DNA of 26,349 nucleotides from Paramacrobiotus metropolitanus. Taxonomy: Eukaryota; Tardigrada; Eutardigrada; Parachela; Macrobiotidae. This document shows positions 204-26,349 of the stretch, piece by piece. A model generated the notes under the pieces. It was not told where the DNA came from and ran no database searches. It saw only the letters and a program-made list of their open reading frames with translations. Every line of letters starts with the position of its first letter. Positions within the stretch are counted from its first letter, which is position 1. The stretch spans positions 1 to 26,349 of the forward strand of contig NW_026570625.1 of assembly GCF_019649055.1 (NCBI RefSeq). Reading direction: 5' to 3'. Made by a program: the position numbers and the translations under genes.

Positions 204-284
204 AGTAGTAAACGGCGTCCCGCAAAGGATTTTGGATTCCAGTTATCTACTGGACTTCCGGACTGCAGTTTGTGACGTCACAAT
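204..284 (+). repeat. Left terminal inverted repeat
   Basis: This is an inverted match to 26269-26349, sharing AGTAGTAAACGGCGTCCCGC at the tip and an inner block ACTGGACTTCCGGACTGCAG, with a handful of substitutions and one indel. It starts with AG, as Polinton ends commonly do. It marks the left end of the element and is the expected integrase-binding and replication-priming end. Confidence 0.9.
273..280. promoter_or_regulatory. CRE/ATF-type palindrome next to the left TIR
   Basis: A perfect TGACGTCA, within the longer palindrome GTGACGTCAC at 272-281, sits at the inner edge of the left repeat. This is the consensus cAMP-response (CREB/ATF) site. The matching position in the right repeat reads TGATGTCA on the plus strand, one base off. 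Function as a promoter element is inferred only. Confidence 0.35.
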
Positions 285-404
285 AAGTAAATAAATTCCG
301 CAAAAAATTAAAACTAAAATATACTTTGTATTAATAATTTACAAAAATATTACCATAGTTACTGATTAAATCGTTAGTTGTTGACTGTATCTAAATATTT
401 ACTC

Positions 405-614: not shown

Positions 615-1840
615 CGTCCGAGGTGCTCATTTCCGATTCGCTTTCTCCTATGTCATCCACGCGTGGGTCATCACGGACTTCCGGATGGTCACCTGACAAA
701 ATGAAATAAAACCACATTAAAAATGAATACACATAGACAAGCTGATCACACCATGCAGCGCGTTCTTAGCCAGGTTTATGGCAACATCCAGTTTGTTCAA
801 AGCAGCGCTGACATCACGTCCGTTCTCAGACTGGGTCAGGTATCGGTCAGCAATGAGAGTGCTAACAGTGGACATTTCTTGGACAATGGGAAGGAACGCT
901 TCCTGGGCTGCAATAAACTGTGAAATAAAACTTAATACAAGTCAGAGGAACTACACTTACCAATGGTCATCTTCTCAATGTTTAGCTTTGATTTGAGATG
1001 TTCAAAGCCAGTTATCAGGGAGAGGCAGTGTTCCTTAATTTTGTCGTTATACATTGATACAGAGTTTGTCAGCTCAGTCAGTTGTTTCCACAAGGATTTG
1101 TACGCCTTGGTTCTGGCCTTAAGCTCACTTTCCGACAGCTGATCGGTAGGCACAAGTTCACTGGTCGTTCCAATGTGAGTTCGCGAATTTTTCTCCAGCA
1201 ATTTCGTTTCGTCTTGTTTCTTTTTGTTGTCAGCGATGATGCGTGTGATTTTCTGCGAGTAGTGTGATGGGTAATTTGATATTTCATCAATCCAGTAGCC
1301 CTCATCAGACGATGGCATACTGTCTGGCGGACAGGAAGCCAAAAGAGTTGCAATGCTTTCCATGTGATACTTTTCCATTGCTTGTGCAACGTCCAACAGC
1401 TTCTTCAGTATCACAATAATAGCAGTGAACATTGTTTTCTGATGGTGGTGAATGTACGCAAGGTCAAGAGCGCTCTTCTGGAACTTGCGCACCAGTTTAC
1501 CCTGTAAATAAATGCAACTGATAATCAGGTTACTGCATAATAACATTTCTTACCGTCTTAGTGCGCCATTCGTCGGACTGGATGTTTAAGTACTTGGTGG
1601 TGGCCACAGCCAGTCGGTTTCTATACTTGATGCTGTAGACATTGCTATGGCTGGCAAAATCCTTAAAATATTGTGGCAGTTTCGTTGCGGGTTTTGGAAT
1701 CCTAAAAGGAAGTAGACGTTAATACATACTGCCATTTCTTTTTAACTTTACTTAGGACATAAAATTAACGACTACAACGGTGGTAAAACTTACAGAATTA
1801 TTATGATTAAAAACGAATATATATTCGCTGCGCGTGCCAT
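607..1840 (-). CDS. Five-exon gene, 325-aa protein with hydrophobic N-terminus
   Basis: Five exons fit GT-AG rules and one continuous frame: 1840-1794, 1701-1554, 1501-961, 907-752 and 692-607. They total 978 nt, exactly 325 codons plus stop, and every phase matches, which strongly supports a real and intact gene. Introns are 92, 52, 53 and 59 bp. The first exon encodes MARAANIYSFLIIII, a short positive N-terminus followed by a hydrophobic run, like a signal peptide or anchor. The middle is charged, helical and probably coiled-coil. The last exon is a strongly acidic tail (ESESEMSTSDDE). I recognise no family. Being next to the left TIR and pointing outward, it could be a lineage-specific virion surface or host-interaction protein, but that is inference. 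Confidence 0.72.
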
Positions 1841-2758: not shown

Positions 2759-3379
2759 TCAGACGATTGCGATTGTACCGAGGAGCAACGCGGTGTCAAT
2801 GGAGAGTGTCGAATCACCAGCTAAGGAAAATGGAAAAGAATTCCAAAATGAAGCTCGAGCAAAATCTATTTGAGAAGTTGGCAAAGTTCTGATAGACTTC
2901 CTCAATATGTTCAATTTTTTTAAACCAAGTATGTTACATTTTCCACTATTAAAGACTATACATGTGGCTTTTTTCATCTTTATTGTCATGCCTGGAAATA
3001 TCTCTGGCTCGTAGTATTTGTCACCAGTTGAATGGCCAATATTTTCAAGGTTTTGTCGTCGCAGCTGACATGAAGCAATAATATTAACAACCTTATAATT
3101 TGTTATTCGTGCTCCTTTGTAACCCGTAGCAATAAGCTTTCGCAAAAAGTATTTTGCATAATTTCGTGACTCGCGCAGTGTGCGTCCGCCATTGACAGTA
3201 ATTTTACCGTTGCGATATAATTGGCAGTGGAATTTTTTCGGATATATTACGCGCCACAAAAGACAAGAGAATTTTTTAGGATCGTATTCTGTGATAAAGT
3301 CTCTGTTCAAATTAAGCTGGTGCAAGTCGATTGGCACATTCAAGTGCGCAGTTGCGACGATATTGGTTATTTGTGCCAT
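2759..3379 (-). CDS. TATA-binding-protein-like protein
   Basis: A single open frame of 206 aa. Residues 3-88 resemble the first TBP saddle repeat: ITNIVATAHL, then EYDPKKFSCLLWRV, LYRNGKITVNGG, and a helix with SRNYAKYFLRKL. Residues about 92-165 resemble the second: ITNYKVVNIIASCQL, YYEPEIFPGMTIKM, and CIVFNSGKCNILG. Both halves keep the order of strands and helices of the TBP core, with conserved EPE-FPG and SGK features, but are highly diverged from eukaryotic TBP. The C-terminal 40 residues match nothing. The gene starts head to head with the ATPase gene, start regions within about 35 bp. Known TBPs bind TATA DNA and nucleate pol II initiation; a role in element-specific transcription is inferred. 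The frame is open although neighbours are broken. Confidence 0.85.
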   Translation of the reverse strand: MAQITNIVATAHLNVPIDLHQLNLNRDFITEYDPKKFSCLLWRVIYPKKFHCQLYRNGKITVNGGRTLRESRNYAKYFLRKLIATGYKGARITNYKVVNIIASCQLRRQNLENIGHSTGDKYYEPEIFPGMTIKMKKATCIVFNSGKCNILGLKKLNILRKSIRTLPTSQIDFARASFWNSFPFSLAGDSTLSIDTALLLGTIAIV

Positions 3380-5206: not shown

Positions 5207-6082
5207 TGCACTGAGCAGCCTAGGGGGCTCGAGCGGTTTCACAAAAACCTTCCAGAAAATGTTTCCAAAAGCCAAAAATATTCTTGAGGGATCGATGCCT
5301 ACACTTTACATAAGCCTGTCAACCGAAAATTCCACAGGAATCCGGTGGTCGTCCTAAATAAAATAGCCAGCTCAGGTAGATTTGATGGATATGCAAAAGT
5401 TTAAAAAGTGGAACAAAATTATGGCTACGTGTTGGTTGCTATTGATTGTTTTTCTAAAAAAATAGAATGCGAGTTAATTAAGTGTAAAGATGGTTTATCA
5501 ACGGCAAAAGCACTGGAAAAATACTAGAACGCCTGGGTCCATTCGACAAAATACAGGCTGATAAAGGCCGTGAATTTTTTAATAAAAATGTCAGGGATTT
5601 ACTCAAACGGAAAGAGATTATGCTATTCAGTTCGGAAAACGATGACATAAAATGTTCCATGGCGGAGCGCGTTATTCGAACGCTGCGTGAGCGCATATGG
5701 CGCTTATTTACTAGTCGAAAATCTCCAAAATATTACGATCGGCTACAAAATATTGTATGGACATATAATCACACTCCTCACTCTTCTCATGGCTTTTGTC
5801 CTGCGGATGTGACTGAAGAAAATTCCTGCTTGTGTTTAATCGATTATACGAGAAAACAGACCATAAAAAAAGAAACCAGTATTTAAGGTGAAAGATGTCG
5901 TCAAATTGCCAAAAAAAGCAGGACTTTGAAAAAGGTTTTGAAACAAACTTTCAGGAGGAGCTTTTCGAATAGCAAAGGTAATACCACATACACCGGAGCC
6001 AGTGTATGAGCTCGAGGATGAAAAAGAGGAGCCAATAGTAGGAAAATTTTATGCAAGGGAGCTAACGCGGATTAGAAAATGA
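5178..6082 (+). pseudogene. Retroviral-type integrase (Polinton integrase), several frame breaks
   Basis: Starts at MDQHYLNPSALSSLGG, a typical Polinton integrase N-terminus. Pieces of the RNase-H-fold core follow in different frames: VAIDCFS-type strand with the first acidic region near 5390-5450, QADKGREF (second Asp) near 5555-5580, and AERVIRTLRERIW (Glu) near 5665-5700, then the TYNHTPHSSHG segment conserved in this family. Frame changes fall near 5325-5345, 5380-5420, 5515-5530 and 5860-5890. The reading ends at TGA 6080-6082, overlapping the next gene's ATG (ATGA). The family integrates the element into host DNA with a short target duplication; as written this copy cannot encode a full enzyme. 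Confidence 0.85.
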
Positions 6083-7234: not shown

Positions 7235-7650
7235 ATGGGATATAAAGCTTTGCGCCTGGTCGGGATTATTTGATGATTTACTAGGTCATACACAGCTGGG
7301 GAGCGGATTTGTTCGATATCGTGGAAGCTATCAAAACGGTGGAGGTTTTGGTAGTTTTCTGCGTGCAGTATTTTCCAAGGTTGCTCGTTTTGTTGCACCA
7401 GTTGTAAGGGCGGCAGCGCCACGAGCTAAACCGCTTTAGCAGCTGCTACGCCTCATTTAAAGAAGCAGCTAGTACAGCGGTACATGAAGCTGCAAAATCT
7501 GTGGGCAACAAAATCGCCCAAGTTCTCGCACCAACTCAACAAACATCTAGCGGTAAAAAGGAAGAAAAAGTGTACAAGAAGCCAACGAAGCGGAAACGCA
7601 CTACCAAAATTCGCCGGGTCCCACCATTTGATCTTCCTGACTATATTTAG
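7235..7650 (+). pseudogene. Minor virion protein with amphipathic/hydrophobic helix, copy 1
   Basis: A short leader from ATG 7235 changes frame near 7258. The body starts LFDDLLGHTQLGSGFVRYRG, then GGGFGSFLRAVFSKVARF and Val/Ala-rich sequence, a second helical region and a basic tail (KKPTKRKRTTKIRR) ending at TAG 7648-7650. The GGGFGSFLR-type helix just before the capsid gene is a recurrent adintovirus/Polinton feature and resembles membrane-lytic or core proteins of adenoviruses. Frame breaks near 7258 and 7425-7445. The tandem duplication starts near this gene's first codons. The function is inferred from position and composition. Confidence 0.6.
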
Positions 7651-7652
7651 AA

Positions 7653-9039
7653 ATGGCTTCCATAATCGAAGGGTCAGAACCTGCCATTGCTGCAGAATCG
7701 CACATTTTGCCATACCGCCTTCGTTTGCGGACCGATTCCGGACAGAAGAAGAAAGAATCGGCCCCACAGCCGCCATTCGGAAAATATTCCGGCGGGTGGT
7801 GACATAAATTTTATATAGCTCCTTCATCAAACGCCATGGTTTCTTTACCGGATTTAAGCATAGAATTAGAAGTGGCACTAAAGAAAAGGAATGCTGATGG
7901 TAGTTGGGAGCGAATCAAAGCGACGGATACCTGTGCTCCTGTAAATAATTTGATTCATTCAATGTTTCAATCAGTTCAAGTTTCGGTTGCTAACCGATTG
8001 GTAAGCGACTGCGCAATCTATTATCCATACAGAGCAATGTTTGAGTGCTTGCTAAATTACACAAAAGAGGCGATGAATACACAGCTAACATCCTGTGGGT
8101 TTTACTTGGATGTCGCCGGAAGCTTTGAAGATTCGGTTAACAACTCAGCCGAACAATCACGACTCAGGCTTTTCGCAAAACATGAATACATCCCTTTAAG
8201 CGGGAAATTGTTTTCGGATATTTTCATGCAAGACAAGCCTTTGATAACTGGAGTTCCATTACAAATACGCTTTGTTTTGCATAAACCGGAATTCTATCTT
8301 CGCGATTTTGCGAATCCGGCGCAGGACGAATTTAAATTATTTATACGCAATCCAAGAATTTTTGTTCGCCGTTATGTTGGTAAGCAGCAGGAAAAATTTG
8401 AAAATATCTGCATAAAAAAAATCTAATGCATTACTATTACAGGGGTTCCAGAATACATGAATGCTATAAGCAAGCGGTTATTACCACAACAGCAAAATAT
8501 CCTATAGAACGTGTTCTGATGCGCCCGATCGAATTACCTGCCAACATACAAAGCACTGTTTTTAATAACATACACATTGGTCAAGTCCCCAAGGTGCTTT
8601 TTGCTTTTGTCGCAGCGGATGCTTTTAACGGCACAAAAGACAAATCCATTCAATTTTCAACACTTTAATTTGTCTCAAATCAGCGTCGAAGTTGATGGAC
8701 AGTCTTTTCCTAATCGGCCGTACGAGCCGGATTATGCAAACGGTAATTACGGAGTGCTACGATGGTCTGCTAGACACTTTAGGACGGCGTAACAGTCCTT
8801 TTGGCGCACTGCCTTTTAATCGCGACGAGTATGCAAACGGATTCTGTATTTACGGCTTTGATTTAACGCCAGAGGAACCGGACTCGGCCTCTAAGTTTAA
8901 TTCGTCAGGGTAATTTAGGCATCGAGTAGTCTTCAACCAACCGCTCAAGCAGCCCACGATCATGGTCACATTTCTTACGTTTGACGCGGTAATAGAAATT
9001 AACAATTTTCGTCAGCTAATTTGTGACTTTACCAACTAA
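7653..9039 (+). pseudogene. Double-jelly-roll major capsid protein, copy 1, frame-broken
   Basis: Conserved Polinton capsid features are present: NLIHSMFQSVQVSVANRLV, YPYRAMFECLLNY, LTSCGFYLDVAG, then after an intron AKYPIERV, FNNIHIGQVPK and the FDLTP strand near the end. A good GT-AG intron at 8380-8442 (donor GGTAAGC, branch-like TCTAAT, acceptor TATTACAG) sits near the middle, so the apparent stop there is intronic. Genuine frame changes remain near 7762-7810, 8640, 8745-8755 and 8870-8925. The protein forms the capsid shell trimer. Three of these breaks are absent from copy 2; the one near 7807 is shared. Confidence 0.88.
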
Positions 9040-9044
9040 CTAAA

Positions 9045-9456
9045 ATGGATAATCGAACAATGACAAAGATACTTTGCCAAAATCCAAAAACGGAGAGGAT
9101 ATTTCGAGGAGTTTATGCCGGATACACTTCCCGAACGCTCCAAAGCGTCAACAGCCTGGTCATCCATCCAGCCGTTTTTCGACTCATACGGACGATCTGT
9201 GGAGTATTTTGACGAGATTAGAGAATGGTTAACTGATTTACATGTTGTTTATCAAATGGAACGTATACAACAAACGTTTTCGACAGTCTGCGGTCAATTT
9301 TGCATTTTTTTTATTTATAAGCGCGCAAGCGAAGAATCATATAGAGACATTATTCATTATTTCACAAAAAATTACGCAAACAATGATGCAATGGTTTGTC
9401 AATGGGTAAACAATCACTTTAACATGAACACAGCAATGTATGCAGAGCTTGAATAA
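9045..9456 (+). pseudogene. Adenain-type cysteine protease, copy 1, active-site His segment deleted
   Basis: Compared with copy 2, 66 bp are missing between 9121 and 9175 and the joining sequence is altered. The lost part contains the GEHWLAFY segment with the catalytic histidine. A 2-nt difference near 9117 also shifts the frame from the 9045 start. The downstream part is open to its stop at 9454-9456 and keeps FFDSYG and TVCGQFC with the catalytic cysteine. This family matures capsid precursors. Copy 1 cannot be active as written. Its 3' end is intact where copy 2 is shifted. Confidence 0.85.
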
Positions 9457-9614
9457 AATAAAAAAGCAGCAAATTTTTTGGGTTTTACATTTCACATTTT
9501 ATGTCCCTGAGGTAGAAGTAAAGCAATCAGCACTTTTTTTAGCGTTTACATTTCACATTTTATGGTAACACAGACATGCTTTACCGTAACACAAAACGCA
9601 AACGATTCCGTCGC
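9457..9614. terminator. Convergent 3' region with a duplicated 20-mer (copy 1)
   Basis: The protease (plus) and PC4-like (minus) genes converge here. An AATAAA lies over the protease stop (9452-9457). The 20-mer TTTACATTTCACATTTTATG occurs at 9484-9503 and again at 9545-9564, 61 bp apart. On the minus strand it begins CATAAAA, close to a poly(A) signal. I read the region as a shared 3'-processing zone. Copy 2 has the same arrangement at 13775-13937. Confidence 0.4.
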
Positions 9615-10683
9615 TTAGACACCACCGTCTTCACCACCGTTGCCGCTGTTTCCTTCCTGGGCCTTGTTGATTTCGATAGGCAGTTTCATCTTCCCGTCTC
9701 CAATCTCCGTAATCTTCAGCTTCTCCATAGCAATACGCTTGACAGACTCCCACAGGGTATCCTTATGCTGGTCCAAAAACTGTTTGGCGTTAAAACCCAA
9801 AATGTCGTCAAATCCGGTAAGCTGGCCCCAAGGACGCAGTAACAACATCATGCCAATGAGACGTTTGCCATTTCAAGCTCAGTAATGATGTCGTTCATCA
9901 TTTCATCCGTTAGATTCAGTGTACCCAATCCCCATTCACAGGCATGGCTGGCTTCACGAACAGTTGGTTGTGTAAACAACGTGACCATTTCCCGCAACGT
10001 GCACAGTTCTCGTGCAGACGGTCAAGCCACATACCATACATGGTGAACGGTAGGCCAGCCAACAGGCTTGAAAAATCCGCTGCCGTTGGTTCGTTGTGAA
10101 TCACTAGCGAGCCACGTGCTTTCAACAAAGCATTGATGTCCTTGAACATTGACAGGTCTTGGATGGTGGTACGAAGTGATTCAAACGATTTTATCCCAAA
10201 AGAAACACCATTCTTGGTGGCCTGCATGTCGCCGTTGCCTCTCTTGCAGAACTGGCGGATATTGGCCAGCGCTACACTGTCATAGCTTGACCACACAAAA
10301 TAGACGTCGTTTCCGAGGTGAAACAGGGTGGACAGGTTACCGCTGGTTAGCTGTGGATCCCGGATTAAAGTCGTAATGTTGTTGTAGATGAGTCCAACGA
10401 GGCGCATGAACTGGTCGTTGGTGAGAAAAATGTGTTTCTCTCCCAGCGTCCATTTCGCATCTGGTCAGGAGGACTGGCAGTCGTAAAGTCGCCAATTATG
10501 AACTCCAAGGCCTGGGTGTCACTGTTGATGCGGGTGCAGATGAACTTGTCGTACCCGAACTTCATGGTAGGGAATCCTTCATAGTGGAAAGCGATCTTTC
10601 CGCTCGCAAACTTGCGCTTTGCTTCCCGACAAGATCAGTTTTATCGGGTACGAAACCGCGTTTGGAAGAGGCAGACTAGTCAT
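9615..10683 (-). pseudogene. Tandem PC4-like protein, copy 1, frame-broken
   Basis: Nearly identical to the open gene at 13938-15011, but 1-nt losses near 9875, 9993, 10466 and 10625-10675 split it into pieces. Start codon CAT is at 10681-10683 and stop TTA at 9615-9617. See the copy 2 entry for domains. The losses are mostly in short homopolymers, so sequencing error is a real alternative to decay. Confidence 0.85.
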
Positions 10684-10907
10684 GGTATATCAGAAGAAAA
10701 GGTAGACTAACTAAAGTGTCAGGAAGAATAATGAAAACGAGTTGGAATTAGAAGCCTGTATTTATAATAATCAAATACACTAAACACCCTGACCACAAAA
10801 TCCGGTTCAGCAATTTGTTGCTCAGCATTTTGTTGTTCACACTGGGCTTTATAAACCGTAGAGCAGAGCACACACGCACGCACGCACGGCTACACGCTAA
10901 CAGAACA
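10684..10907. promoter_or_regulatory. Divergent promoter region, copy 1
   Basis: 224 bp between the minus-strand PC4-like start and the plus-strand IAP start. TATAAA at 10850-10855 points to the IAP copy; TATTTATA at about 10759-10766 is TATAAATA on the minus strand, pointing to the PC4-like gene. It is nearly identical to 15012-15236. Confidence 0.5.
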
Positions 10908-11491
10908 ATGGACGGTTTTGCAAGTGCTTTTGGCCCTCGTGGGGATCCGCGCTATCCAGCCGAAAGTGTTGAGAATCGCATTGAAACATTTCGTGGTTGT
11001 GGGGTAAAATTACCCTCGAAGTGGCGAAAGAGTACGCCGAACTGGGCTGGTACTGCACGGGGATCCAGCACCAGATCCGTTGTGTTTACTGCTGTGAGAT
11101 TGAGGGACATGTCTAACGGGCATCTATCGAACACCGTGCAAGAATCCATGCTTTGGCAAAGCAGTTAAAGATAACTTCCCACAGATGTGGGTGGAATGCA
11201 ACAGGCTGCGGATGGATTACGATCAGGACAACATTGAGTACAACCATTCACCACCAAACAATCCCGACTGCGCAAAGTATAACACCATGTATGCGCGGGC
11301 GTTTTCCTGACGACAGACCGTGGCCCGAAGAAAAAAAACACTTGGTGTACAAGCTGGCCGAAGCTGGATTCTACAACTGCGGTGAGCTTTACAACAAAAC
11401 ATTCTTTGGCTATCAAGTTGACAAGAAAAACAACTCACGATTGCTGGTCGAACAGTTAAACCAGGCGAAGGGGGTTGGGGGGGCCCCGTTG
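10908..11491 (+). pseudogene. IAP-like gene, copy 1, truncated at the duplication junction
   Basis: Contains the start (MDGFASAFGPRGDPRYPAES), the partial first BIR and the region up to GFYNCG, matching 15237-15820. It is then cut at about 11491, where the sequence joins a second copy of the minor virion gene. The CFYC-containing BIR exon and the RING exon are absent. It also lacks one G in a G run near 11005 relative to copy 2. It cannot make a functional IAP. Confidence 0.85.
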
Positions 11492-11892
11492 CCTGATCCG
11501 GGATTATTTGATGATTTACTAGGTCATACACAGCTGGGGAGCGGATTTGTTCGATATCGTGGAAGCTATCAAAACGGTGGAGGTTTTGGTAGTTTTCTGC
11601 GTGCAGTATTTTCCAAGGTTGCTCGTTTGTTGCACCAGTTGTAAGGGCGGCAGCGCCGCAGGCTAAACCGCTTTAGCAGCTGCTACGCCTCATTTAAAAA
11701 ACAGCTAGTACAGCGGTACATGAAGCTGCAAAATCTGTGGGCAACAAAAATCGCCCAAGTTCTCGCACCAACTCAACAAGCATCTAGCGGCGGTAAAAAG
11801 GGAGAAAAGGGGTATTAAAGAAACCAACGCAGCGGTAACGCACTACCGAAATTCGCTGTGTCCCACCGTTTGATCTTCCTGACTATATTTAG
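11492..11892 (+). pseudogene. Minor virion protein, copy 2, lacks its own start
   Basis: Same body as 7259-7650 (LFDDLLGHTQLGSGFVRYRG, GGGFGSFLR helix, basic tail). Here the 5' end is fused to IAP sequence, so no native start codon is left. The central region has frame breaks (near 11630 and 11690), and the tail has several substitutions, including an early TAA in the basic stretch (about 11815). It looks like the more decayed copy of this gene. The stop equivalent is TAG 11890-11892. Confidence 0.7.
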
Positions 11893-11894
11893 AA

Positions 11895-13290
11895 ATGGCT
11901 TCCATAAGCGAAGGCTCAGAACTTGCCATTGCTGCAGAATCGCACATTTTGCCATACCGCCTTCGTTTGCGGACCGATTCCGGACAGAAGAAGAAAGAAT
12001 CGGCCCCAGCCGCCATTCCGGAAAATATTCCGGCGGGTGGTGACATAAATTTTATATAGCTCCTTCATCAAACGCCATGGTTTCTTTACCGGATTTAAGC
12101 ATAGAATTAGAAGTGGCACTAAAGAAAAGGAATGCTGATGGTAGTTGGGAGCGAATCAAAGCGACGGATACCTGTGCTCCTGTAAATAATTTGATTCATT
12201 CAATGTTTCAATCAGTTCAAGTTTCGGTTGCTAACCGATTGGTAAGCGACTGCGCAATCTATTATCCATACAGAGCAATGTTTGAGTGCTTGCTAAATTA
12301 CACAAAGAGGCGATGAATACACAGCTAACATCCTGTGGGTTTTACTTGGATGTCGCCGGAAGCTTTGAAGATTCGGTTAACAACTCAGCCGAACAATCAC
12401 GACTCAGGCTTTTCGCAAAACATGAATACATCCCTTTAAGCGGGAAATTGTTTTCGGATATTTTCATGCAAGACAAGCCTTTGATAACTGGAGTTCCATT
12501 ACAAATACGCTTTGTTTTGCATAAACCGGAATTCTATCTTCGCGATTTTGCGAATCCGGCGCAGGACGAATTTAAATTATTTATACGCAATCCAAGAATT
12601 TTTGTTCGCCGTTATGTTGGTAAGCAGCAGGAAAAATTTGAAAATATCTGCATAAAAAAAATCTAATGCATTACTATTACAGGGGTTCCAGAATACATGA
12701 ATGCTATAAGCAAGCGGTTATTGACCACAACAGCAAAATATCCTATAGAACGTGTTCTGATGCGCCCGATCGAATTACCTGCCAACATACAAAGCACTGT
12801 TTTTAATAACATACACATTGGTCAAGTCCCCAAGGTGCTTTTTGTGGCTTTTGTCGCAGCGGATGCTTTTAACGGCACAAAAAAGACAAATCCATTCAAT
12901 TTTCAACACTTTAATTTGTCTCAAATCAGCGTCGAAGTTGATGGACAGTCTTTTCCTAATCGGCCGTACGAGCCGGATTATGCAAACGGTAATTACTTGG
13001 AGTGCTACGATGGTCTGCTAGACACTTTAGGACGGCGTAACAGTCCTTTTGGCGCACTGCCTTTTAATCGCGACGAGTATGCAAACGGATTCTGTATTTA
13101 CGGCTTTGATTTAACGCCAGGGGGAACCGGACTCGGCCCTCTAAGTTTAATTCGTCAGGGTAATTTAGGCATCCGAGTAGTCTTCAACCAACCGCTCAAG
13201 CAGCCCACGATCATGGTCACATTTCTTACGTTTGACGCGGTAATAGAAATTAACAATTTTCGTCAGCTAATTTGTGACTTTACCAACTAA
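11895..13290 (+). pseudogene. Double-jelly-roll major capsid protein, copy 2
   Basis: The better-preserved copy. N-terminal piece starts MASISEGSELAIAAESHILP; a frame break near 12050-12056 (T run before ATATAG) is shared with copy 1. The core from 12077 has NLIHSMFQSVQVSVANRLV and YPYRAMFECLLNY; a 1-nt loss near 12303 (ACACAAAG versus ACACAAAAG) changes frame before LTSCGFYLDVAG. An intron 12620-12682 (63 bp) fits GT-AG rules and phase. After it the frame is open to TAA 13288-13290, containing AKYPIERV, FNFQHFNLSQISVEVDGQ and FCIYGFDLTPGGTG. The protein belongs to the Polinton double-jelly-roll capsid family (database relatives are labelled F54H12.2-like). The intron falls near the boundary of the two jelly rolls. 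Confidence 0.9.
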
Positions 13291-13295
13291 CTAAA

Positions 13296-13774
13296 ATGGA
13301 TAATCGAACAATGACAAAGATACTTTGCCAAAATCCAAAAACGGAGAGGATATTTCGAGGAGTTTATGCCCGGGATACACTTCCCGAACGCTCCAATGTT
13401 TTACCTGCCGCCTACATCGTCAACACGGACAAATCCAGTGGTTCTGGTGAACACTGGTTAGCATTCTATCAAAGCGAGCCGTCATCCATCGAGTTTTTCG
13501 ACTCATACGGACGATCTGTGGAGTATTTTGACGAGATTAGAGAATGGTTAACTGATTTACATGTTGTTTATCAAATGGAACGTATACAACAAACGTTTTC
13601 GACAGTCTGCGGTCAATTTTGCATTTTTTTTATTTATAAGCGCGCAAGCGAGAATCATATAGAGACATTATTCATTATTTCACAAAAAATTACGCAAACA
13701 ATGATGCAATGGTTTGTCAATGGGTAAACAATCACTTTAACATGAACACAGCAATGTATGAAGAACTTGAATAA
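13296..13774 (+). pseudogene. Adenain-type cysteine protease, copy 2, shifted near the C-terminus
   Basis: Open from MDNRTMTKILCQNPK to residue 143. His53 lies in GEHWLAFY, Asp69 in FFDSYG, Gln99 in QQTFSTVC and Cys105 in CGQFC, matching the His-acidic-Gln-Cys active-site order of adenovirus protease (family C5). One A is missing near 13651 relative to copy 1 (GCGAGAATC versus GCGAAGAATC), so the last part is read in a wrong frame to a stop at 13725-13727; the natural stop would be 13772-13774. The enzyme would process virion precursors. Catalytic residues are all present in this copy, but its C-terminal helix is lost. Confidence 0.9.
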
Positions 13775-13802
13775 AATAAAAAAGCAGCAAATTTTTTTGG
13801 GT

Positions 13803-13885
13803 TTTACATTTCACATTTTATGTCCCTGAGGTAGAAGTAGAAGCAATCAGCACTTTTTTTTAGCGTTTACATTTCACATTTTTAT
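13803..13885. repeat. Duplicated 20-mer in convergent 3' region (copy 2)
   Basis: TTTACATTTCACATTTTATG at 13803-13822 and a version with one extra T at 13866-13886, in the gap between the convergent protease and PC4-like genes. It is the equivalent of 9484-9564. The motif is kept in both positions and both duplicates, so it may be a 3'-processing or boundary element. Confidence 0.45.
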
Positions 13886-13937
13886 GGTAACACAGACATG
13901 CTTTACCGTAACACAAAACGCAAACGATTCCGTCGCT

Positions 13938-15011
13938 TTAGACACCACCGTCTTCACCACCGTTGCCGCTGTTTCCTTCCTGGGCCTTGTTGATTTCGAT
14001 AGGCAGTTTCATCTTCCCGTCTCCAATCTCCGTAATCTTCAGCTTCTCCATAGCAATACGCTTGACAGACTCCCACAGGGTATCCTTATGCTGGTCCAAA
14101 AACTGTTTGGCGTTAAAACCCAAAATGTCGTCAAATCCGGTAAGCTGGCCCCAAGGACGCAGTAACAACATCATGCCAATGAGACGTTTGCCATTTCCAA
14201 GCTCAGTAATGATGTCGTTCATCATTTCATCCGTTAGATTCAGTGTACCCAATCCCCATTCACAGGCATGGCTGGCTTCACGAACAGTTGGTTGTGTAAA
14301 CAACGTGACCATTTCCCCGCAACGTGCACAGTTCTCGTGCAGACGGTCAAGCCACATACCATACATGGTGAACGGTAGGCCAGCCAACAGGCTTGAAAAA
14401 TCCGCTGCCGTTGGTTCGTTGTGAATCACTAGCGAGCCACGTGCTTTCAACAAAGCATTGATGTCCTTGAACATTGACAGGTCTTGGATGGTGGTACGAA
14501 GTGATTCAAACGATTTTATCCCAAAAGAAACACCATTCTTGGTGGCCTGCATGTCGCCGTTGCCTCTCTTGCAGAACTGGCGGATATTGGCCAGCGCTAC
14601 ACTGTCATAGCTTGACCACACAAAATAGACGTCGTTTCCGAGGTGAAACAGGGTGGACAGGTTACCGCTGGTTAGCTGTGGATCCCGGATTAAAGTCGTA
14701 ATGTTGTTGTAGATGAGTCCAACGAGGCGCATGAACTGGTCGTTGGTGAGAAAAATGTGTTTCTCTCCCAGCGTCCATTTCGCATCTGGTCCAGGAGGAC
14801 TGGCAGTCGTAAAGTCGCCAATTATGAACTCCAAGGCCTGGGTGTCACTGTTGATGCGGGTGCAGATGAACTTGTCGTACCCGAACTTCATGGTAGGGAA
14901 TCCTTCATAGTGGAAAGCGATCTTTCCGCTCGCAAACTTGCGCTTTGCTTCCCCGACAAGATCAGTTTTATCGGGTACGAAACCGCGTTTGGAAGGAGGC
15001 AGACTAGTCAT
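13938..15011 (-). CDS. 357-aa protein with two tandem PC4-like units
   Basis: Fully open, no intron. Residues about 41-102 (MKFGYDKFI, LEFIIGDF, LGEKHIFLTNDQFMRL) and about 121-178 (FHLGNDVYFVW, VALANIRQFCKRGNGDM, TKNGVSFGIKSFESL) each follow the pattern of the PC4/p15 transcriptional coactivator single-strand-DNA-binding fold: Phe-x-x-Gly, strand, IR-aromatic strand, Gly-containing loop, KKGIS-like strand, then a helix ending in Leu. Human PC4 has one unit and dimerises; here two units in one chain could form the dimer internally. The C-terminal 175 residues, with a CARC pair and a Gly-rich acidic tail, are unrecognised. A TATAAATA lies about 77 bp upstream. PC4 acts in pol II transcription and ssDNA protection; either role would fit. 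Assignment rests on pattern, not a search. Confidence 0.62.
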   Translation of the reverse strand: MTSLPPSKRGFVPDKTDLVGEAKRKFASGKIAFHYEGFPTMKFGYDKFICTRINSDTQALEFIIGDFTTASPPGPDAKWTLGEKHIFLTNDQFMRLVGLIYNNITTLIRDPQLTSGNLSTLFHLGNDVYFVWSSYDSVALANIRQFCKRGNGDMQATKNGVSFGIKSFESLRTTIQDLSMFKDINALLKARGSLVIHNEPTAADFSSLLAGLPFTMYGMWLDRLHENCARCGEMVTLFTQPTVREASHACEWGLGTLNLTDEMMNDIITELGNGKRLIGMMLLLRPWGQLTGFDDILGFNAKQFLDQHKDTLWESVKRIAMEKLKITEIGDGKMKLPIEINKAQEGNSGNGGEDGGV

Positions 15012-15236
15012 GGTATATCAGAAGAAAAGGTAGACTAACTAAAAGTGTCAGGAAGAATAATGAAAACGAGTTGGAATTAGAAGCCTGTATTTATAATAAT
15101 CAAATACACTAAACACCCTGACCACAAAATCCGGTTCAGCAATTTGTTGCTCAGCATTTTGTTGTTCACACTGGGCTTTATAAACCGTAGAGCAGAGCAC
15201 ACACGCACGCACGCACGGCTACACGCTAACAGAACA
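15012..15236. promoter_or_regulatory. Divergent promoter between PC4-like and IAP-like genes
   Basis: 225 bp separate two divergent start codons. TATAAA at 15179-15184 lies 53 bp before the IAP ATG; TATTTATA at 15088-15095 reads TATAAATA on the minus strand, about 77 bp before the PC4-like ATG. Both spacings leave room for a short 5' UTR. A CA-rich tract (ACACACGCACGCACGCACGG) precedes the IAP start. Two clear TATA boxes in an element that encodes a TBP-like protein make this a candidate target of that protein. Confidence 0.55.
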
Positions 15237-16585
15237 ATGGACGGTTTTGCAAGTGCTTTTGGCCCTCGTGGGGATCCGCGCTATCCAGCCGAAAGTGTTG
15301 AGAATCGCATTGAAACATTTCGTGGTTGTGGGGGTAAAATTACCCTCGAAGTGGCGAAAGAGTACGCCGAACTGGGCTGGTACTGCACGGGGATCCAGCA
15401 CCAGATCCGTTGTGTTTACTGCTGTGAGATTGAGGGACATGTCTAACGGGCATCTATCGAACACCGTGCAAGAATCCATGCTTTGGCAAAGCAGTTAAAG
15501 ATAACTTCCCACAGATGTGGGTGGAATGCAACGGGCTGCGGATGGATTACGATCAGGACAACATTGAGTACAACCATTCACCACCAAACAATCCCGACTG
15601 CGCAAAGTATAACACCATGTATGCGCGGGCGTTTTCCTTTGACGACAGACCGTGGCCCGAAGAAAAAAAACACTTGGTGTACAAGCTGGCCGAAGCTGGA
15701 TTCTACAACTGCGGTGAGCTTTACAACAAAACATTCTTTTGGCTATCAAGTTGACAAGAAAAACAACTCACGATTGCTGGTCGAACAGTTAAACCAGGCG
15801 AAGGGGGTGGGGGCCCTGTTGCTCGCTGCCGACACATTTGGCTAATGTGTCGGACGCGGTAAATAACGTCGACCGGAGCGCTTCGCGCTTCCGGTCGCCC
15901 GTTGTTTACAGGACAATGGGTTTTTTATTATTACGCAGGTCTTACTGTGCCGGGAGTTTCGGTATGCCCGGATGCTGTACGCTGTTTTTACTGCTATGTC
16001 TTCATTTCTGGATTGCCGCTGGATCTGGAACCATGGATTGAACATGCCCGCCAATCACCAGCCTGTGCATATCTGATGAATGTAAAAGGCAAACGGTTCA
16101 TCAACGATGTTATACGAGCTTGCAAGTCCCCTGTTACCGACATTGGAATACAAGGTGGGTTTCATCTGTTTGTTACTTTTATTTTTTAATAATAATAATA
16201 ATATGTAGGTATGACAGTTTTGGAAAACAAAGCACGGCTCGTTGGCTTCAGTCAAGACCAAATTGATGCCGCTAAGGCCAAGAAGAAGGGCCGTTTCTAT
16301 TTTTGGGAGGAATTGGAAGAAGCGGTGGAGTTCCACAACGCCGATTTTTTGGAGCAAAAGCATTTTTTGCACTATGCCACCGAAGTACCCGTCGGAGACG
16401 ATGCCCGCACCGTTGAGCAGTTGAAATGTAAAATCTGTCTGTCGCGGTATGCCAACACGCTGATCAGTCCGTGTAAGCATTTGGTCATGTGCGGACAGTG
16501 CGCCAAAGCGACCCTAGACCGAGGAAGCCTCTGCCCGTACTGCCGTCAGCCTGTTGAAGCCGTCACGTCACTTTATTTTACTTGA
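15237..16585 (+). CDS. IAP-like protein (BIR and RING), multi-exon
   Basis: Starts MDGFASAFGPRGD. The first BIR is incomplete (IETFRGCGGKITL, GWYCTGI, CVYCC) and has a frame break near 15440 that is also in copy 1. A second BIR begins EEKKHLVYKLAEAGFYNCG, then probably an intron 15714-15938 (GTGAGC donor, T-rich acceptor). The next exon has PDAVRCFYC and PWIEHARQSPACAYL, matching the zinc pattern C-x2-C-x16-H-x6-C. Intron 16155-16208 (54 bp) is clear. The last exon has a UBA-like GFSQDQIDAA segment and a C-terminal C3HC4 RING (CKICLSRYANTLISPCKH, CGQC, CPYC) typical of IAP E3 ligases. IAPs block caspases or signal through ubiquitin; a role in keeping host cells alive is inferred. The 5' part is partly degenerate. 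Confidence 0.82.
15829..15853. repeat. Perfect hairpin, 10-bp stem
   Basis: CCGACACATT-TGGCT-AATGTGTCGG, a perfect 10-bp stem with a 5-nt loop. It begins about 8 bp after the right end of the tandem duplication, in the long candidate IAP intron. It may be the remnant of an inserted element or a replication-stalling structure. Confidence 0.75.
15859..15909. repeat. Large GC-rich hairpin, about 23-bp imperfect stem
   Basis: GTAAATAACG followed by CGACCGGAGCGC pairs with GCGCTTCCGGTCG and CGTTGTTTAC across a short TTC loop, with one or two mismatches and a small bulge. It directly follows the 15829-15853 hairpin. Its GC content is unlike the AT-rich surroundings. The acceptor of the candidate IAP intron lies 29 bp beyond. 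Confidence 0.7.
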
Positions 16586-16754: not shown

Positions 16755-18238
16755 TCTTAATGCGTTTGATGGCGAAGCTCTTTGGGATAAAGTTTTAAGT
16801 GACCTGGAAATTCAGCTGCAGGACTATAATGTTCTTACGACTCCGACAACAAGTACTTTGGGTATAATTAAACGCAAAATTTTTGTACAGTTGTTGAAAT
16901 ATAAATTTGTTGTAGTTACGCAACAACAACAACAACAGCAACAACAGCAACAGCCAGAACTACACCTTCAATCAAGTCCGTGGTCTCCACCACCCATTCA
17001 GCCGATTTTTAAAGGTTAAAAAGTTTTTATCATCTCGTTCACTTAATTTATAGCTGAGAAACTCTTTAATTTTATAGATGAAGCAACTGGTGCGGAAATC
17101 TGCCACCACGGTATCTACACAATTTTTATTTCTGTGCCAGCAGCAGCAGCAACAACATACGCCTCAAGTTTCATTTTCATGTTGCAGTGGGTGACCAGAT
17201 ATTCCGTTTAACACCATTATATGGCCGCCTGGAAGACTTAAAATCTAGTCTTATGCTTTGTTTGTTATTGCAACTTATTTTCCAAAGGTATATATATATT
17301 GCAGGCATTGATCCAGTGCAAGGATATATTGCCCGCTACGAATACTACAAGCAGCGCCATCTCTACATTATTCTGTCGCCACATAACACTCTGCAGCAAC
17401 CTACAGCTCTACCTGGTGATCAACAACTTCCCGATCCATTACCCATCACAGATCAGTCGCTGTCGGTTTCAACAGCACCGCTTTCCGTTCCGTTCTCTGT
17501 TGTCACTACATCTCCGACTGCTGAAGTTGCTGGACCCAGTACCTCTGCACTTCCATCATCGTCAAAAGTAAGTTTCTTATCCTGATCCTTAACTCTTTTT
17601 GATTATTTACATTATTTATTTTGTAGATACTGTTACTGCAGCGCCAGCGGATTCTGGGGACCAGCATCTCGTGCCACCTGCCAAGCGTATCAGATTAGCA
17701 AACGCTGAATCCGTGGACTGGCTCTACCAGACCTTTACTGATAAACGGGACGACCGGACCTTCCGAAGTTATTCACAGTACCGCGATGCGTATAGCATCT
17801 TTGTCAGAAAAGGATCCAATAATCCTTTCATGGCTTTTTACCGGTTGCATAAAAAATCCAACGTACAGTTCGTTATTGCCCGCCATAAAAAATACGCGGT
17901 GCAATGAACTGGTTGTCGGAATGGATATTCTGGAAAAGATTGTAGAATGGACCAATACGCCTGCTTTTGCAAAGTACCGCCAGAAAACAGTCTCCGCCTC
18001 CACCGCCAATGCGCATCCGGAAACCCTATCTTGGTGCATTATCGACACCACGTCCAATACCCAAGCAGCTTTTGTTCATGAAAACCGTACTACGACTGCC
18101 TCTGATGACTCAGCCATGTCTGTACGTATCAGATCTGGCGATACCATAAAAAATTGTGTTGATATAAAGTCAGATGAGTTAGAATTTGTGAAGCAGTGTC
18201 AGGAACACTTTTCTGTCATTAAGAACCAGTTGCTGTGA
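16747..18238 (+). CDS. Multi-exon gene of unknown function with polyQ tract, upstream of PolB
   Basis: Exon 1 (16747-17014) starts MDDLNAFDGEALWDKVLSDL and has an 11-residue Gln run encoded by CAA/CAG. Introns 17015-17077 and 17111-17187 keep phase. Exon 3 (17188-17567) has GDQIFRLTPLYGRLEDLK, GYIARYEYYKQRHLYI and a Pro/Ser/Thr-rich low-complexity end. Intron 17568-17626 has good sites, but the next readable frame (PPAKRIRLANAESVDWLYQ, DDRTFRSYSQYRDAY) is out by one nucleotide. A further frame change lies near an A6 run at 17884-17889, after which the frame runs to TGA 18236-18238. A hydrophobic stretch read at about 17250-17306 might be an intron. The polyQ and Ser/Pro-rich linker followed by a folded C-terminal part resemble regulatory proteins. 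I recognise no family. Confidence 0.5.
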
Positions 18239-18255
18239 CCTTTCTGCTTGCAAAA

Positions 18256-21200
18256 ATGCCTCGCATAGCTGCTGACGCTGCTGATTCAGTTGATTCTAAT
18301 AATAATGATAACGATACTAATGCTGTTGATGATGACGATGTTACCGAAGACCCGCTTCATATAAAGAACTTTTTCGTGTTGAAACCGATAAACGATTTTT
18401 ACAATCGCCGTTATCAGATGACGTGTAAAAGATTTGCGTGCAAAGTTCATCGCCTCAGTCATATTCCTTTTGCTGAGATTCCCGATGTCATAACAGCCAT
18501 TTTGAACGAAATTTTAAATGAAATCCTTACTGACATCCCAGATCACGAGCGGGTAAGAATCAAGTTGCATAGCCGTCACCTCTCGTACCCTATTCACACA
18601 CCTTTCATTCGTCGTGATCAGCTAACCGTTGCGCGATTGATGAAAGAAGTTTCCCGCGTACTCAATTCCAATCAAGAATTTGTACTGGATGATTCTTTTG
18701 AGCTGGAAATCCACCATTCCAACCTTCCCGCTGGATCCTGTCGATACGATGTTCCTTTATTATTGCGCAAAAAGCTGGAGACCATGAGGAGCGTAATACC
18801 TGTTCGTAATTCAGATAACCTCTGTTTGGCTCGTGCGCTTGTTATAGCTAAGGCCCTCGCAGATGACAATATACCGCTGTACGAACGCTTGTATCACACT
18901 AAAAAACTCTGTACGGCTTCCGACAGAACGCTGCAGACAAAAATGGCTAAAGAACTCATTGCTAACGCAGGACTGGATCTTCGACAATATACTTTGGAAG
19001 ACGTTCAACAGTTTCAACTGGCCTTACCGGACTACCAAATCCTGATAACGAGTGTCGACCACCTCAATACGATCGTCTATGCCGGCGAATATGCCGAAAA
19101 AAAGATTCGTTTGCTACATCATAGTAACCATTTTGATGTCTTGAAAAGCCTGCCGGCTTGGTTCAAAACATCGTACTGGTGCGACCGTTGCAATCGCGGA
19201 TACGATCATAAAAATCGCCATCGATGCCAATACCGTTGCAAACAATGCCTGCGATTTGAATGTAATCCTGGAGAAGAAAGAATATACTGTTCGGACTGCT
19301 GCCGAACATTTTACGGTGAGGAGTGTTTCAATCATCATCGCGCTGCTGGCTCGGGAGAAAACGGGATTACGGTATGTCAAACGTTATTTGTCTGTCCATC
19401 TTGCCAATCATTTGTCTCCAGAGTTTTTCGTACCACGGACCACGTGTGCGGTGAGATTTTTTGCACGGTGTGCAAAGAACACGTATCAAATGACCACGTC
19501 TGCTACATTGAGCCCGAAGTCCTGACGGACCAGGATCTCGAAAAGCACGAACAGGCCCAGTTTCTCTATTTCGATTTTGAGACATACCCGTGTCCGGAAA
19601 CGGGCAATTTTATTCCGAACCTGGCCGTTCTTCAAAACGACAACGGCCAGGAATGGATTTTTCCTGCTGACTCGTGCGATATTGGCCGGGATATAACAAC
19701 AGAATTTTGCGAGTTTTTATTTTCCGGATTATTTAAAAACTTCTACGTCTTGGCCCATAATCTTCGAGCGTTCGACGGTTTTTTTGTTCTGAAATGGTTA
19801 CTAAGAAATGGGATAGTTCCAAAGCTGATAATGAACGGCTCAAAAATTATGCAACTAGATGTTCCTGAATTTGGCATAAAATTTCGTGATACTTTGAATT
19901 ACAATCCCCAATCGTTAGACGCTTGGGCTCAAGCGTTCGGAGCGACAGAGCAAAAAGGTAAATTCCCTCATCCCGTCAATCGCCCAGAAAATTTTGGCAA
20001 AATTATCCCCTATCCTAAGAGGGAGGAATTCAATTACAGCTTGATGAATAACAAAGAAAGAAAAGACTTTATCAAAGGATTTTATCGAAAAGATCGCAGA
20101 AAAAAGAAAGGAAAGTACAATGTCAACGAGGAGCTCGTCAAATACTGCAAGCAAGATGTTAGCACCTTACGCGTTTGCTCTCAAGAATTCCGAAAGTTGT
20201 TCATGGGTATTTCAGGTGGGCTTTGCCCATTTACTTCAGCGCTAACAATTGCGGGTATATGCCATTTTTTCTGGCGCGCACGGATACTGGAAAAAAACCT
20301 TATTGCAATTGTGAAAAACCCTAGTCAGCGCACGCAGTCAGTCAAATGTGGTAAATGGTTGTGCTACATTGAAATGACGGAAGGCAAAGCACTTGCAAGA
20401 GAACAGAAGATTGGAAAATATTACGTGGACGGTTATGACGAAGAAGCGGAAATTATTTACGAATTCTATGGCGACTACTGGCACGGCAATCCCGCAACCA
20501 CAAGACGCACATTTGTAAATCCTCATCTCAAGCAAACGATGGAGAATTTGCATGCGGCAACCGTCCAGCGAGAAATCGCCCTTGAGCAAATGGGATACTC
20601 TGTTATTAAAATTTGGGAAAGCGAGTACGACCAGAAATTGGCAGAGGATGAGGATTTTCGTGAAACACTAAAAGATATTCATGTTCACGCACCTCTTCAA
20701 CCCCGCGATGCTCTATATGGAGGCCGGACCAACGGGACACGGTTGCATTATAAATGCGAGCCCGGAGAACAAATACGGTACAATTAGTTAAGAAAGGATT
20801 ATAATCTTGATTTTATTGATAGGTGTTTTTAGGTTTGCCGATGTCATTTCGGAATATCCCTTTGTAAATTCGCGGAAGAGATATCCAGTTGGCCCACACG
20901 TGCGAATTACTGCGGACTTTGATGCAAATTTGGAAAATTACTTCGGACTATTTTACCTGACGATTCTACCGCCCAAATGTCTATGGTTACCAGTTCTACC
21001 CTATCGTACTGAAAATTAACTTTTCCGCTATGCCGGCTATGTGCTGAGACGCAGCAAAATTCTAGCTGTCATCACACAGACGCCGAAAGATCACTTACGG
21101 GCGTCTGGTGCTCTGTGGAAATCATTAAGGCACTATCCCTGGGATATACGGTGATAAAAGTCTACGAAATTTGGCATTTTCCGAGTTCTCGCGAAGGCTT

Positions 21201-25845: not shown

Positions 25846-26268
25846 ATTCCGATGATTCTCAGCAGTCGCTATGTTTCCTATCACGGTCAAATTTTTGTGT
25901 TGGTATTTTAGCCTTTAAGCCTTACTTTGATCTGGGCACCAATGTTTGATCTCGTTTATACTAATGTTGGACGAAAACACATACAGCTGTTTCCGGTGTT
26001 GCGCTTTTGAGAATTCAATGATAGGGATGTCAGTGTGAGTGAATTACTTGGCTTTTTTTATTTTAAATATTTTATTATTAAAAGTTGTGAATAGCAACGG
26101 AGAATTTTGGCACTTTGTGCGATTGAGTAGAACAGAGTTTTAGTATCTGGAGTTTTTTTACCAGGAAAATTTCTGTCCGTTTCATTGACATATACCCTGA
26201 ATTATTTTAATTTTATTTAATTAAATTAGCTTTTTTTTTGTATTAATTTTATTAATGTTTTAATATTA

Positions 26269-26349
26269 TTATGATGTCATAAACTGCAGTCCGGAAGTCC
26301 AGTAAGGAACTGGAATTCAAAATCCCTTTGCGGGACGCCGTTTACTACT
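26269..26349 (-). repeat. Right terminal inverted repeat
   Basis: Read on the minus strand it matches 204-284 and ends exactly at the last base of the window. The element may therefore end here, or the repeat may continue beyond the window. Divergence from the left copy is low (roughly 7 differences over 80 bp), so the element is not ancient. Confidence 0.9.

What the first reader, a model, noticed from the sequence alone, without database searches (positions are those of the whole stretch)
2759..3379. A Polinton-borne TATA-binding-protein-like gene
An open 206-codon frame has both halves of the TBP saddle in order, diverged enough to be a long-standing passenger. TBP-like genes are known in some giant viruses; I do not know of them as a described Polinton component. 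It stays open while most adjacent structural genes are broken.
Basis: partly seen in the sequence, partly recalled or inferred. Interest (0 to 1): 0.88.

Follow-up and report, generated by a model that had tools for sequence, protein, structure and literature searches.

The report
Tardigrade Polintons carry their own TBP
More than a hundred virus-like Polinton elements in a tardigrade genome carry their own gene for TATA-binding protein, the factor with which cells begin transcription, and this protein would likely let each element mark its own promoters for the host's RNA polymerase; our searches of an open-access paper library turned up no earlier report of such a gene in Polintons.

The parts
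2759..3379 (-). TBP-like gene (open frame of 206 codons); codons 1-155 (2915-3379) are the two TBP repeats, codons 156-206 are out of the family's frame
   Evidence: Pfam PF00352 5.5e-30; PDB TBP 1.6e-19; intact siblings of 171 aa in L048/L049
3377..3380 (.). CATG in which the start codons of TBP (-) and ATPase (+) overlap head to head; same arrangement in L048 and L049
   Evidence: sequence; coordinates of the two genes in L048 and L049
3378..4177 (+). ATPase gene (P-loop GPTMSGKT in siblings; probably the packaging ATPase), in four frame pieces in this copy
   Evidence: blastp pieces against the intact L048 protein; siblings match Pfam Pox_A32 only under its cut-off
5405..6079 (+). rve integrase gene, three pieces
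   Evidence: blastp pieces against the L048 integrase, which matches Pfam rve 4.7e-11
7641..8423 (+). capsid protein, first copy (N-terminal part, in pieces)
   Evidence: lies in one of two copies of a direct repeat spaced 4.24-4.33 kb
11883..13290 (+). capsid protein, second copy, in pieces (C-terminal half 12697-13290)
   Evidence: genome-wide search with this half; relatives named F54H12.2-like
13296..13727 (+). adenain-type protease
   Evidence: Pfam Peptidase_C5 3.4e-6
13938..15011 (-). PC4-domain protein (357 aa); a second, broken copy lies at 9618-10634
   Evidence: own Pfam match 0.0025, under cut-off; family profile; sibling L040 PC4 1.4e-8, over cut-off; family profile against PDB finds PC4 only, 1.5e-4
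18235..20787 (+). type B DNA polymerase (first 850 aa; a further piece at 21115-21396)
   Evidence: Pfam DNA_pol_B_2 2.5e-23; the further piece 1.2e-5, just under cut-off
224..286 (+). left arm of terminal inverted repeat (63 nt, 87%)
26266..26328 (-). right arm of terminal inverted repeat

Best explanation
The window frame encodes a TATA-binding protein that is a core gene of this tardigrade's Polintons, and it likely nucleates RNA polymerase II initiation on the element's own promoters, predicted to act through host TFIIB and without TFIIA. Shown: the two-repeat TBP fold, one clade apart from host TBP, at least 225 loci, tight linkage to capsid genes, low pairwise dN/dS, retention of the DNA-wedging residues, and a PC4-domain gene in many of the same elements. 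Inferred: that the protein binds and bends DNA; that the changed central DNA-reading positions (Thr to Asn and Thr to Leu) give it a site preference other than the canonical TATA box; that it uses host TFIIB, since no Polinton TFIIB was found; and that some early genes are first switched on by the host's own TBP from ordinary TATA boxes, after which the viral TBP would serve TATA-less promoters.
For: Fold. Own clade and rejection of host origin. Linkage: 130 of 149 capsid-gene loci have a TBP match within 10 kb and 131 of 225 TBP loci have a capsid match within 10 kb, where at most 1.8% of the genome lies that near. Three layout classes by strand and distance to the capsid gene, 51, 41 and 31 loci (ten loci mapped). 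Selection: median pairwise omega 0.31 at dS 0.02-0.1 (80 pairs), 0.26 at 0.1-0.3 (78), 0.09 at 0.3-0.6 (5), 0.15 at 0.6-1.0 (8), 0.16 at 1-2 (143). Residues over 73 Polinton TBPs: F288 and F305 kept in 73 of 73, F197 in 71 (Tyr in 2), Asn257 in 71, Asn167 in 67 (3 of the other 6 are gaps); Thr222 is Asn in 66 of 66 of groups A, B and database proteins, Thr313 is Leu in 64 of 66; the TFIIA contacts N189 and R205 are absent in 73 of 73; the TFIIB contact E286 is kept in 66 of 73. PC4: 9 of the 10 PC4 matches in the genome lie within 2 kb of a Polinton TBP; the tenth is taken as the host gene (places compared). TFIIB: three loci, none at a listed TBP place. TATAAA lies upstream of 7 of 34 TBP/PC4/PolB starts against 0.9 expected, and of 3 of 44 other starts against 2.2.
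Against: No biochemical or expression data. No late-promoter motif: TATWT in 11 of 44 against 11.8 expected. The TATAAA count (7) passes its own expectation but not the highest count that shuffles reach for any 6-mer (mean 8.4); TTGTGG, in the coding end of the gene before TBP, scores higher (10). The window family's own TBP has no TATA box in the 120 bases upstream. E284, another TFIIB contact, is kept in only 39 of 73 and in 0 of 26 of group B; E191, a TFIIA contact, is still Glu in the window. The central Thr313 also varies in the five eukaryotic TBPs compared (Thr in 2). Omega is near 1 for some pairs (L002 or L005 with L048, 0.85-0.97; L025 with L026, 0.93). Contact residues and their roles are recalled, not taken from a call. 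Whether relatives outside this genome sit in Polintons could not be checked.
Confidence: 0.6

Rival explanations
1. The viral TBP is a decoy: it likely binds host TFIIB or host promoters without productive initiation and so damps host transcription in favour of the element.
For: TFIIB contact E286 kept in 66 of 73 while TFIIA contacts N189 and R205 are gone, which would suit a protein that sequesters TFIIB.
Against: The DNA-wedging residues and fold are kept under low omega, and the gene is linked to a PC4-domain gene, which fits active initiation better. A decoy would not need a DNA-binding saddle.
Confidence: 0.15
2. The TBP serves replication or integration rather than transcription: it likely bends DNA at the terminal repeats or tethers the integrase to host promoters, as TFIIIB tethers Ty3 (recalled).
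For: The elements carry an rve integrase, and TBP is a DNA-bending protein by family.
Against: No TBP-integrase fusion or adjacency in the ten mapped loci. Insertion-site preference was not tested.
Confidence: 0.1
3. It is a host TBP paralogue captured or inserted recently, without function in the element.
For: The window copy is out of frame at its last helix, and some copies drift at omega 0.66-0.97 (L002, L005).
Against: Host-plus-Polinton clade rejected, p 4.7e-47, and host plus group A, p 6e-8; one clade over three layouts; 82 of 102 full-span matches free of stops (rows); low omega.
Confidence: 0.03

Closest known systems
Eukaryotic TBP (host gene at G000:C4:406165-406662)
   Same: Two-repeat saddle; DNA-wedging aromatic positions; minor-groove Asn; E286 of the TFIIB contact
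   Different: 28-30% identity to solved eukaryotic TBPs; groups A and B lack an N-terminal extension, while group C frames are longer, 231-374 aa; Thr222/Thr313 and most TFIIA contacts replaced; F214 is Tyr in groups A and B
TBPs of giant viruses and mirusviruses
   Same: Virus-encoded TBP. PMC10132985 (passages read) gives TBP in 59% of mirusvirus genomes; PMC12085832 and PMC11464507 (passages read) give it in giant viruses; Foldseek matches giant-virus TBP models
   Different: The 8 TBPs from IMG/VR contigs (17-175 kb, kind not determined) fall outside the Polinton clade. Large viruses may bring their own RNA polymerase; Polintons are not known to (recalled)
Beta/gamma-herpesvirus TBP mimics (KSHV ORF24, EBV BcRF1)
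   Same: Works-like model: a viral TBP-like factor that recruits host polymerase II to late promoters (abstract starts seen in the listing)
   Different: Those act in a six-protein complex and read TATT; here a two-repeat TBP with sequence homology to cellular TBP, and TATWT is not enriched. Membership was not tested
Polinton/Maverick elements and adintoviruses
   Same: PolB, rve integrase, adenain protease, F54H12.2-like capsid protein, terminal inverted repeats, and an ATPase with an under-cut-off A32 match
   Different: TBP and PC4 genes; term searches of the vertebrate Maverick paper PMC8097293 and of PMC10120064 found no TATA, TBP or PC4

Membership tests
TBP family | Two TBP repeats in order | tested here: met
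   Pfam PF00352, two stretches, 5.5e-30
TBP family | TBP saddle fold | tested here: met
TBP family | DNA-wedging aromatic residues and minor-groove Asn pair | tested here: met
   Phe, Tyr, Phe, Phe in the window and both Asn present; positions recalled
TBP family | Binds and bends DNA, recruits TFIIB | not testable with these tools
   needs purified protein
TBP family | Complete C-terminal helix in this copy | tested here: not met
   window frame departs at codon 156; intact siblings keep it. A defect of the copy, not of the family
Polinton/Maverick | Type B (viral/organellar) DNA polymerase | tested here: met
   PF03175 2.5e-23; protein priming itself not tested
Polinton/Maverick | rve integrase | tested here: met
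   window pieces 92-97% identical to L048 integrase, PF00665 4.7e-11
Polinton/Maverick | Adenain-type protease | tested here: met
   Peptidase_C5 3.4e-6
Polinton/Maverick | Packaging ATPase of the A32 kind | tested here: inconclusive
   Pox_A32 0.0003-0.002 in siblings, all under cut-off
Polinton/Maverick | Double-jelly-roll capsid protein | tested here: inconclusive
   relatives named F54H12.2-like, a name recalled as that of the Polinton capsid protein; no Pfam match and no capsid chain by sequence in the PDB
Polinton/Maverick | Terminal inverted repeats | tested here: met
   63 nt, 87%, 224-286 and 26266-26328
Host TBP paralogue | Nests with host TBP in a tree | tested here: not met
   AU test p 4.7e-47 and 6e-8
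Giant-virus/mirusvirus TBP | Nests with large-virus TBPs | tested here: inconclusive
   8 and 7 TBPs of IMG/VR contigs of undetermined kind lie outside the Polinton clade; no named giant-virus or mirusvirus TBP was in the tree
PC4 coactivator (window 13938-15011) | PC4 domain | tested here: met
   window protein itself under cut-off; sibling over it; family profile finds only PC4 in the PDB

The most novel reading that the evidence does not exclude
Tardigrade Polintons run their own core-promoter system: an ancient TBP whose DNA-reading floor and cofactor face have been rebuilt, plus a viral PC4, assembles a dedicated pre-initiation complex at non-TATA promoters with host TFIIB and RNA polymerase II, making these the smallest DNA viruses or transposons known with a separate TBP code.
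Probability: 0.35. Interest if true: 0.9.

Novelty: new variant of a known kind. Interest (0 to 1): 0.78.

Why it matters
TBP is the shared heart of transcription initiation in archaea and eukaryotes, and few genomes are known to carry a second, rewired version. Here is a set of many diverged, selected TBPs on mobile elements whose promoters can be read beside the host's. It makes two questions testable: how a virus-like element of about 26 kb that brings no known RNA polymerase might keep its transcription separate, and which residues of TBP set DNA and cofactor preference.

Tried and rejected
Host paralogue insertion: rejected by the tree. Giant-virus capture: the 7-8 IMG/VR TBPs fall outside the clade, but few were sampled and their kind is unknown. 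15 of 91 rows (near-duplicates and the long rows L081, P0023, P0025) were dropped before the careful tree; the clade also holds with all 91 rows (SH-aLRT 96). One Polinton-type row (L019) was left out of the residue counts, so these cover 73 of 74.

IMG/VR scans with the single TBP, capsid alignment and ATPase alignment and the phage collection with ATPase gave nothing; the TBP alignment gave one distant TBP, L039, and its own search 11 loci. Comparing contig lengths of TBP and capsid proteins in the protein database, to show both on one metagenome contig, gave no match; inconclusive. Late-promoter motif: none. Early TATA boxes: suggestive only, also 3 of 19 upstream of the small DnaQ-fold gene.

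Host identity by telomere repeats GATGGGTTTT and TTAGGC and by the SL1 RNA family gave nothing (the SL1 search rang in no control). Identity came from names and contig lengths and a genome paper. That 19 of 149 capsid loci lack a TBP is not shown: lists are capped, five of the 19 lie under 10 kb from a contig start, and C41, C6 and C70, without TBP in the first lists, proved to have one.

Of 12 distinct papers returned by the TBP/PC4 searches, 5 were opened for passages; the other 7 were judged by title and abstract start.

Full report

This copy is not whole. Intact siblings in L048 and L049 end in the last TBP helix at 171 aa; the window frame leaves the family's frame at codon 156 in an A-run, and its remaining 51 codons are unrelated. 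The neighbours are in pieces: ATPase 4, integrase 3, and a protein that is 383 aa in L048 and has no Pfam match, 5. The cause is open. The host's own TBP gene also changes frame at an A6 run, and the published assembly used nanopore R9.4 reads polished with short reads (PMC8277472, passages), a setting in which repeats may keep homopolymer errors (inference).

Host. The genome (169.8 Mb, 533 contigs) has a contig C1 of 4,484,719 bases. Capsid proteins named Paramacrobiotus metropolitanus lie on contigs of exactly the lengths of C1, C44, C58, C70, C168 and C181. The published assembly of Paramacrobiotus sp. TYO is 170.5 Mb with a longest scaffold of 4,484,941. The host is this tardigrade.

A core gene. 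Three searches with TBP proteins and one with the Pfam model give 225 distinct loci after merging, fragments included and the host gene left out. All lists but that stopped at about 150 scored candidates, so this is a lower bound. Against 149 loci of the capsid protein (also capped), 130 have a TBP match within 10 kb, and 131 of 225 TBP loci have a capsid match within 10 kb, while at most 1.8% of the genome lies that near. Three classes dominate by strand and distance: TBP on the capsid strand within 3.5 kb downstream of it (51 loci), TBP on the capsid strand 3.5-7.5 kb upstream of it (41), and TBP on the opposite strand 3.5-7.5 kb away (31; the window's kind). In the ten mapped loci these are TBP between a PC4-type gene and PolB, TBP just upstream of the ATPase, and TBP on the ATPase side facing away from it. 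In the window, L048 and L049 the TBP and ATPase start codons overlap in the four bases CATG. In one search, 82 of 102 matches that span the protein are free of stops inside the match.

Origin. In trees of 91 and 76 TBPs, the Polinton proteins of this genome and 28 or 26 database proteins, one of them named Ramazzottius varieornatus, form one clade (SH-aLRT 96, 74 rows; 100/97, 60 rows). The host TBP groups with other eukaryotic TBPs. Forcing the genome's Polinton TBPs together with host TBP costs 320 log units (p 4.7e-47); group A plus host p 6e-8. TBPs of 8 or 7 IMG/VR contigs fall elsewhere. Several rows are long, and placements inside the clade are often weak. The capsid tree (29 rows) puts the TBP-bearing groups, a Hypsibius sequence and metagenome relatives in one clade (100/100), apart from insect, mollusc, fish and rotifer Polintons. 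The simplest reading is one old acquisition by a tardigrade-associated Polinton lineage, with later changes of gene order (inference).

Selection. Among 65 fetched records (window copy left out, some places held twice), pairwise omega has median 0.31 at dS 0.02-0.1 (80 pairs), 0.26 at 0.1-0.3 (78), 0.09 at 0.3-0.6 (5), 0.15 at 0.6-1.0 (8) and 0.16 at 1-2 (143). Pairs of the broken copies L002 and L005 with L048/L004 or each other reach 0.66-0.97, L025 with L026 0.93, and the highest is 1.04. Pairs are not independent. The pattern fits purifying selection while elements spread and drift after insertion.

Working parts. Numbering and roles of TBP contacts are recalled (human, 339 aa). Over 73 of 74 Polinton TBPs the wedge residues F288 and F305 are kept in all, F197 in 71, and F214 is Tyr in 61 and Phe in 12; Asn257 is kept in 71 and Asn167 in 67. 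The two Thr over the centre of the site are replaced by Asn (66 of 66 in groups A, B and database proteins) and Leu (64 of 66); among the five eukaryotic TBPs compared, the first is Thr in 3 and the second in 2, so these positions are not fixed there either. N189 and R205 of the TFIIA contact are absent in all 73, while E191 is still Glu in the window; the four archaeal TBPs also lack N189. E286 of the TFIIB contact is kept in 66, E284 in 39 and in none of the 26 of group B. This predicts a DNA-bending protein with changed site preference that would use TFIIB but not TFIIA. Three TFIIB-family loci exist in the genome and none is at a listed TBP place, so TFIIB would be the host's.

Promoters. 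TATAAA lies within 120 bases upstream of 7 of 34 TBP, PC4 and PolB starts (0.9 expected by shuffles) and of 3 of 44 other starts (2.2 expected), after removing near-duplicates (78 of 176 kept). It does not exceed the highest count that shuffles reach for any 6-mer. The higher-scoring words, such as TTGTGG before TBP, lie where the preceding gene is coding, so I read them as coding conservation. This is compatible with a host-TBP-driven early phase and a viral-TBP phase, but does not show it; the window family's own TBP has no such box.

Known or not. Searches for Polinton with TATA-binding protein, TBP, PC4 and TFIID, Maverick with TATA-box binding protein, adintovirus with TATA, and virophage with TATA-binding protein returned 12 distinct papers. 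Passages of five were read (PMC10675990, PMC10132985, PMC12220804, PMC12085832, PMC11464507) and none ascribes a TBP to Polintons; PMC10675990 puts TBPs in mirusvirus-like elements of an alga that also has Polinton-like viruses. The other seven were judged by title and abstract start. Term searches of the vertebrate Maverick and protist integration papers found no TATA, TBP or PC4. Subscription papers are mostly not held, and the adintovirus paper itself was not. Virus TBPs as such are known: giant viruses, mirusviruses in 59% of genomes, and TBP mimics of herpesviruses (listing). Hence: a new variant of a known kind, on a new kind of carrier.

Noticed in passing
window 13938-15011 (-) and L040:1953-2885 (-): A PC4-domain protein in Polintons; nine of ten PC4 matches in the genome lie beside a Polinton TBP, the tenth is taken as the host gene.
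   Followed up: partly
L044:6064-6519 (+), L041:2622-3122 (+): Small conserved gene ending at or over the TBP start, predicted DnaQ/DEDD-exonuclease fold with Maelstrom and Exuperantia among the matches; no Pfam family.
   Followed up: partly
window 7261-11480 and 11499-15813: Direct duplication with copies spaced 4.24-4.33 kb, nearly identical, holding capsid, protease and PC4 genes with different frame breaks in each copy.
   Followed up: no
window 15144-15446 and 16211-16585; L083:233-805 (-): BIR (under cut-off in the window) and RING domains, inhibitor-of-apoptosis type; a BIR gene with two matched stretches in L083.
   Followed up: no
G000:C4:406165-406662 (L009, L010): The host's own TBP gene shows a frame change at an A6 run, a sign of homopolymer errors in this assembly.
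   Followed up: partly
L045:4170-5234 (+): Polinton integrase with a C-terminal chromodomain (Pfam Chromo 1.2e-9).
   Followed up: no
No Paramacrobiotus TBP-like protein is named among the listed hits although its Polinton capsid proteins are, so the TBP genes may be unannotated there.
   Followed up: no
window 932-1546 (-): Open frame of 204 aa without a Pfam family over cut-off near the left end of the element.
   Followed up: no
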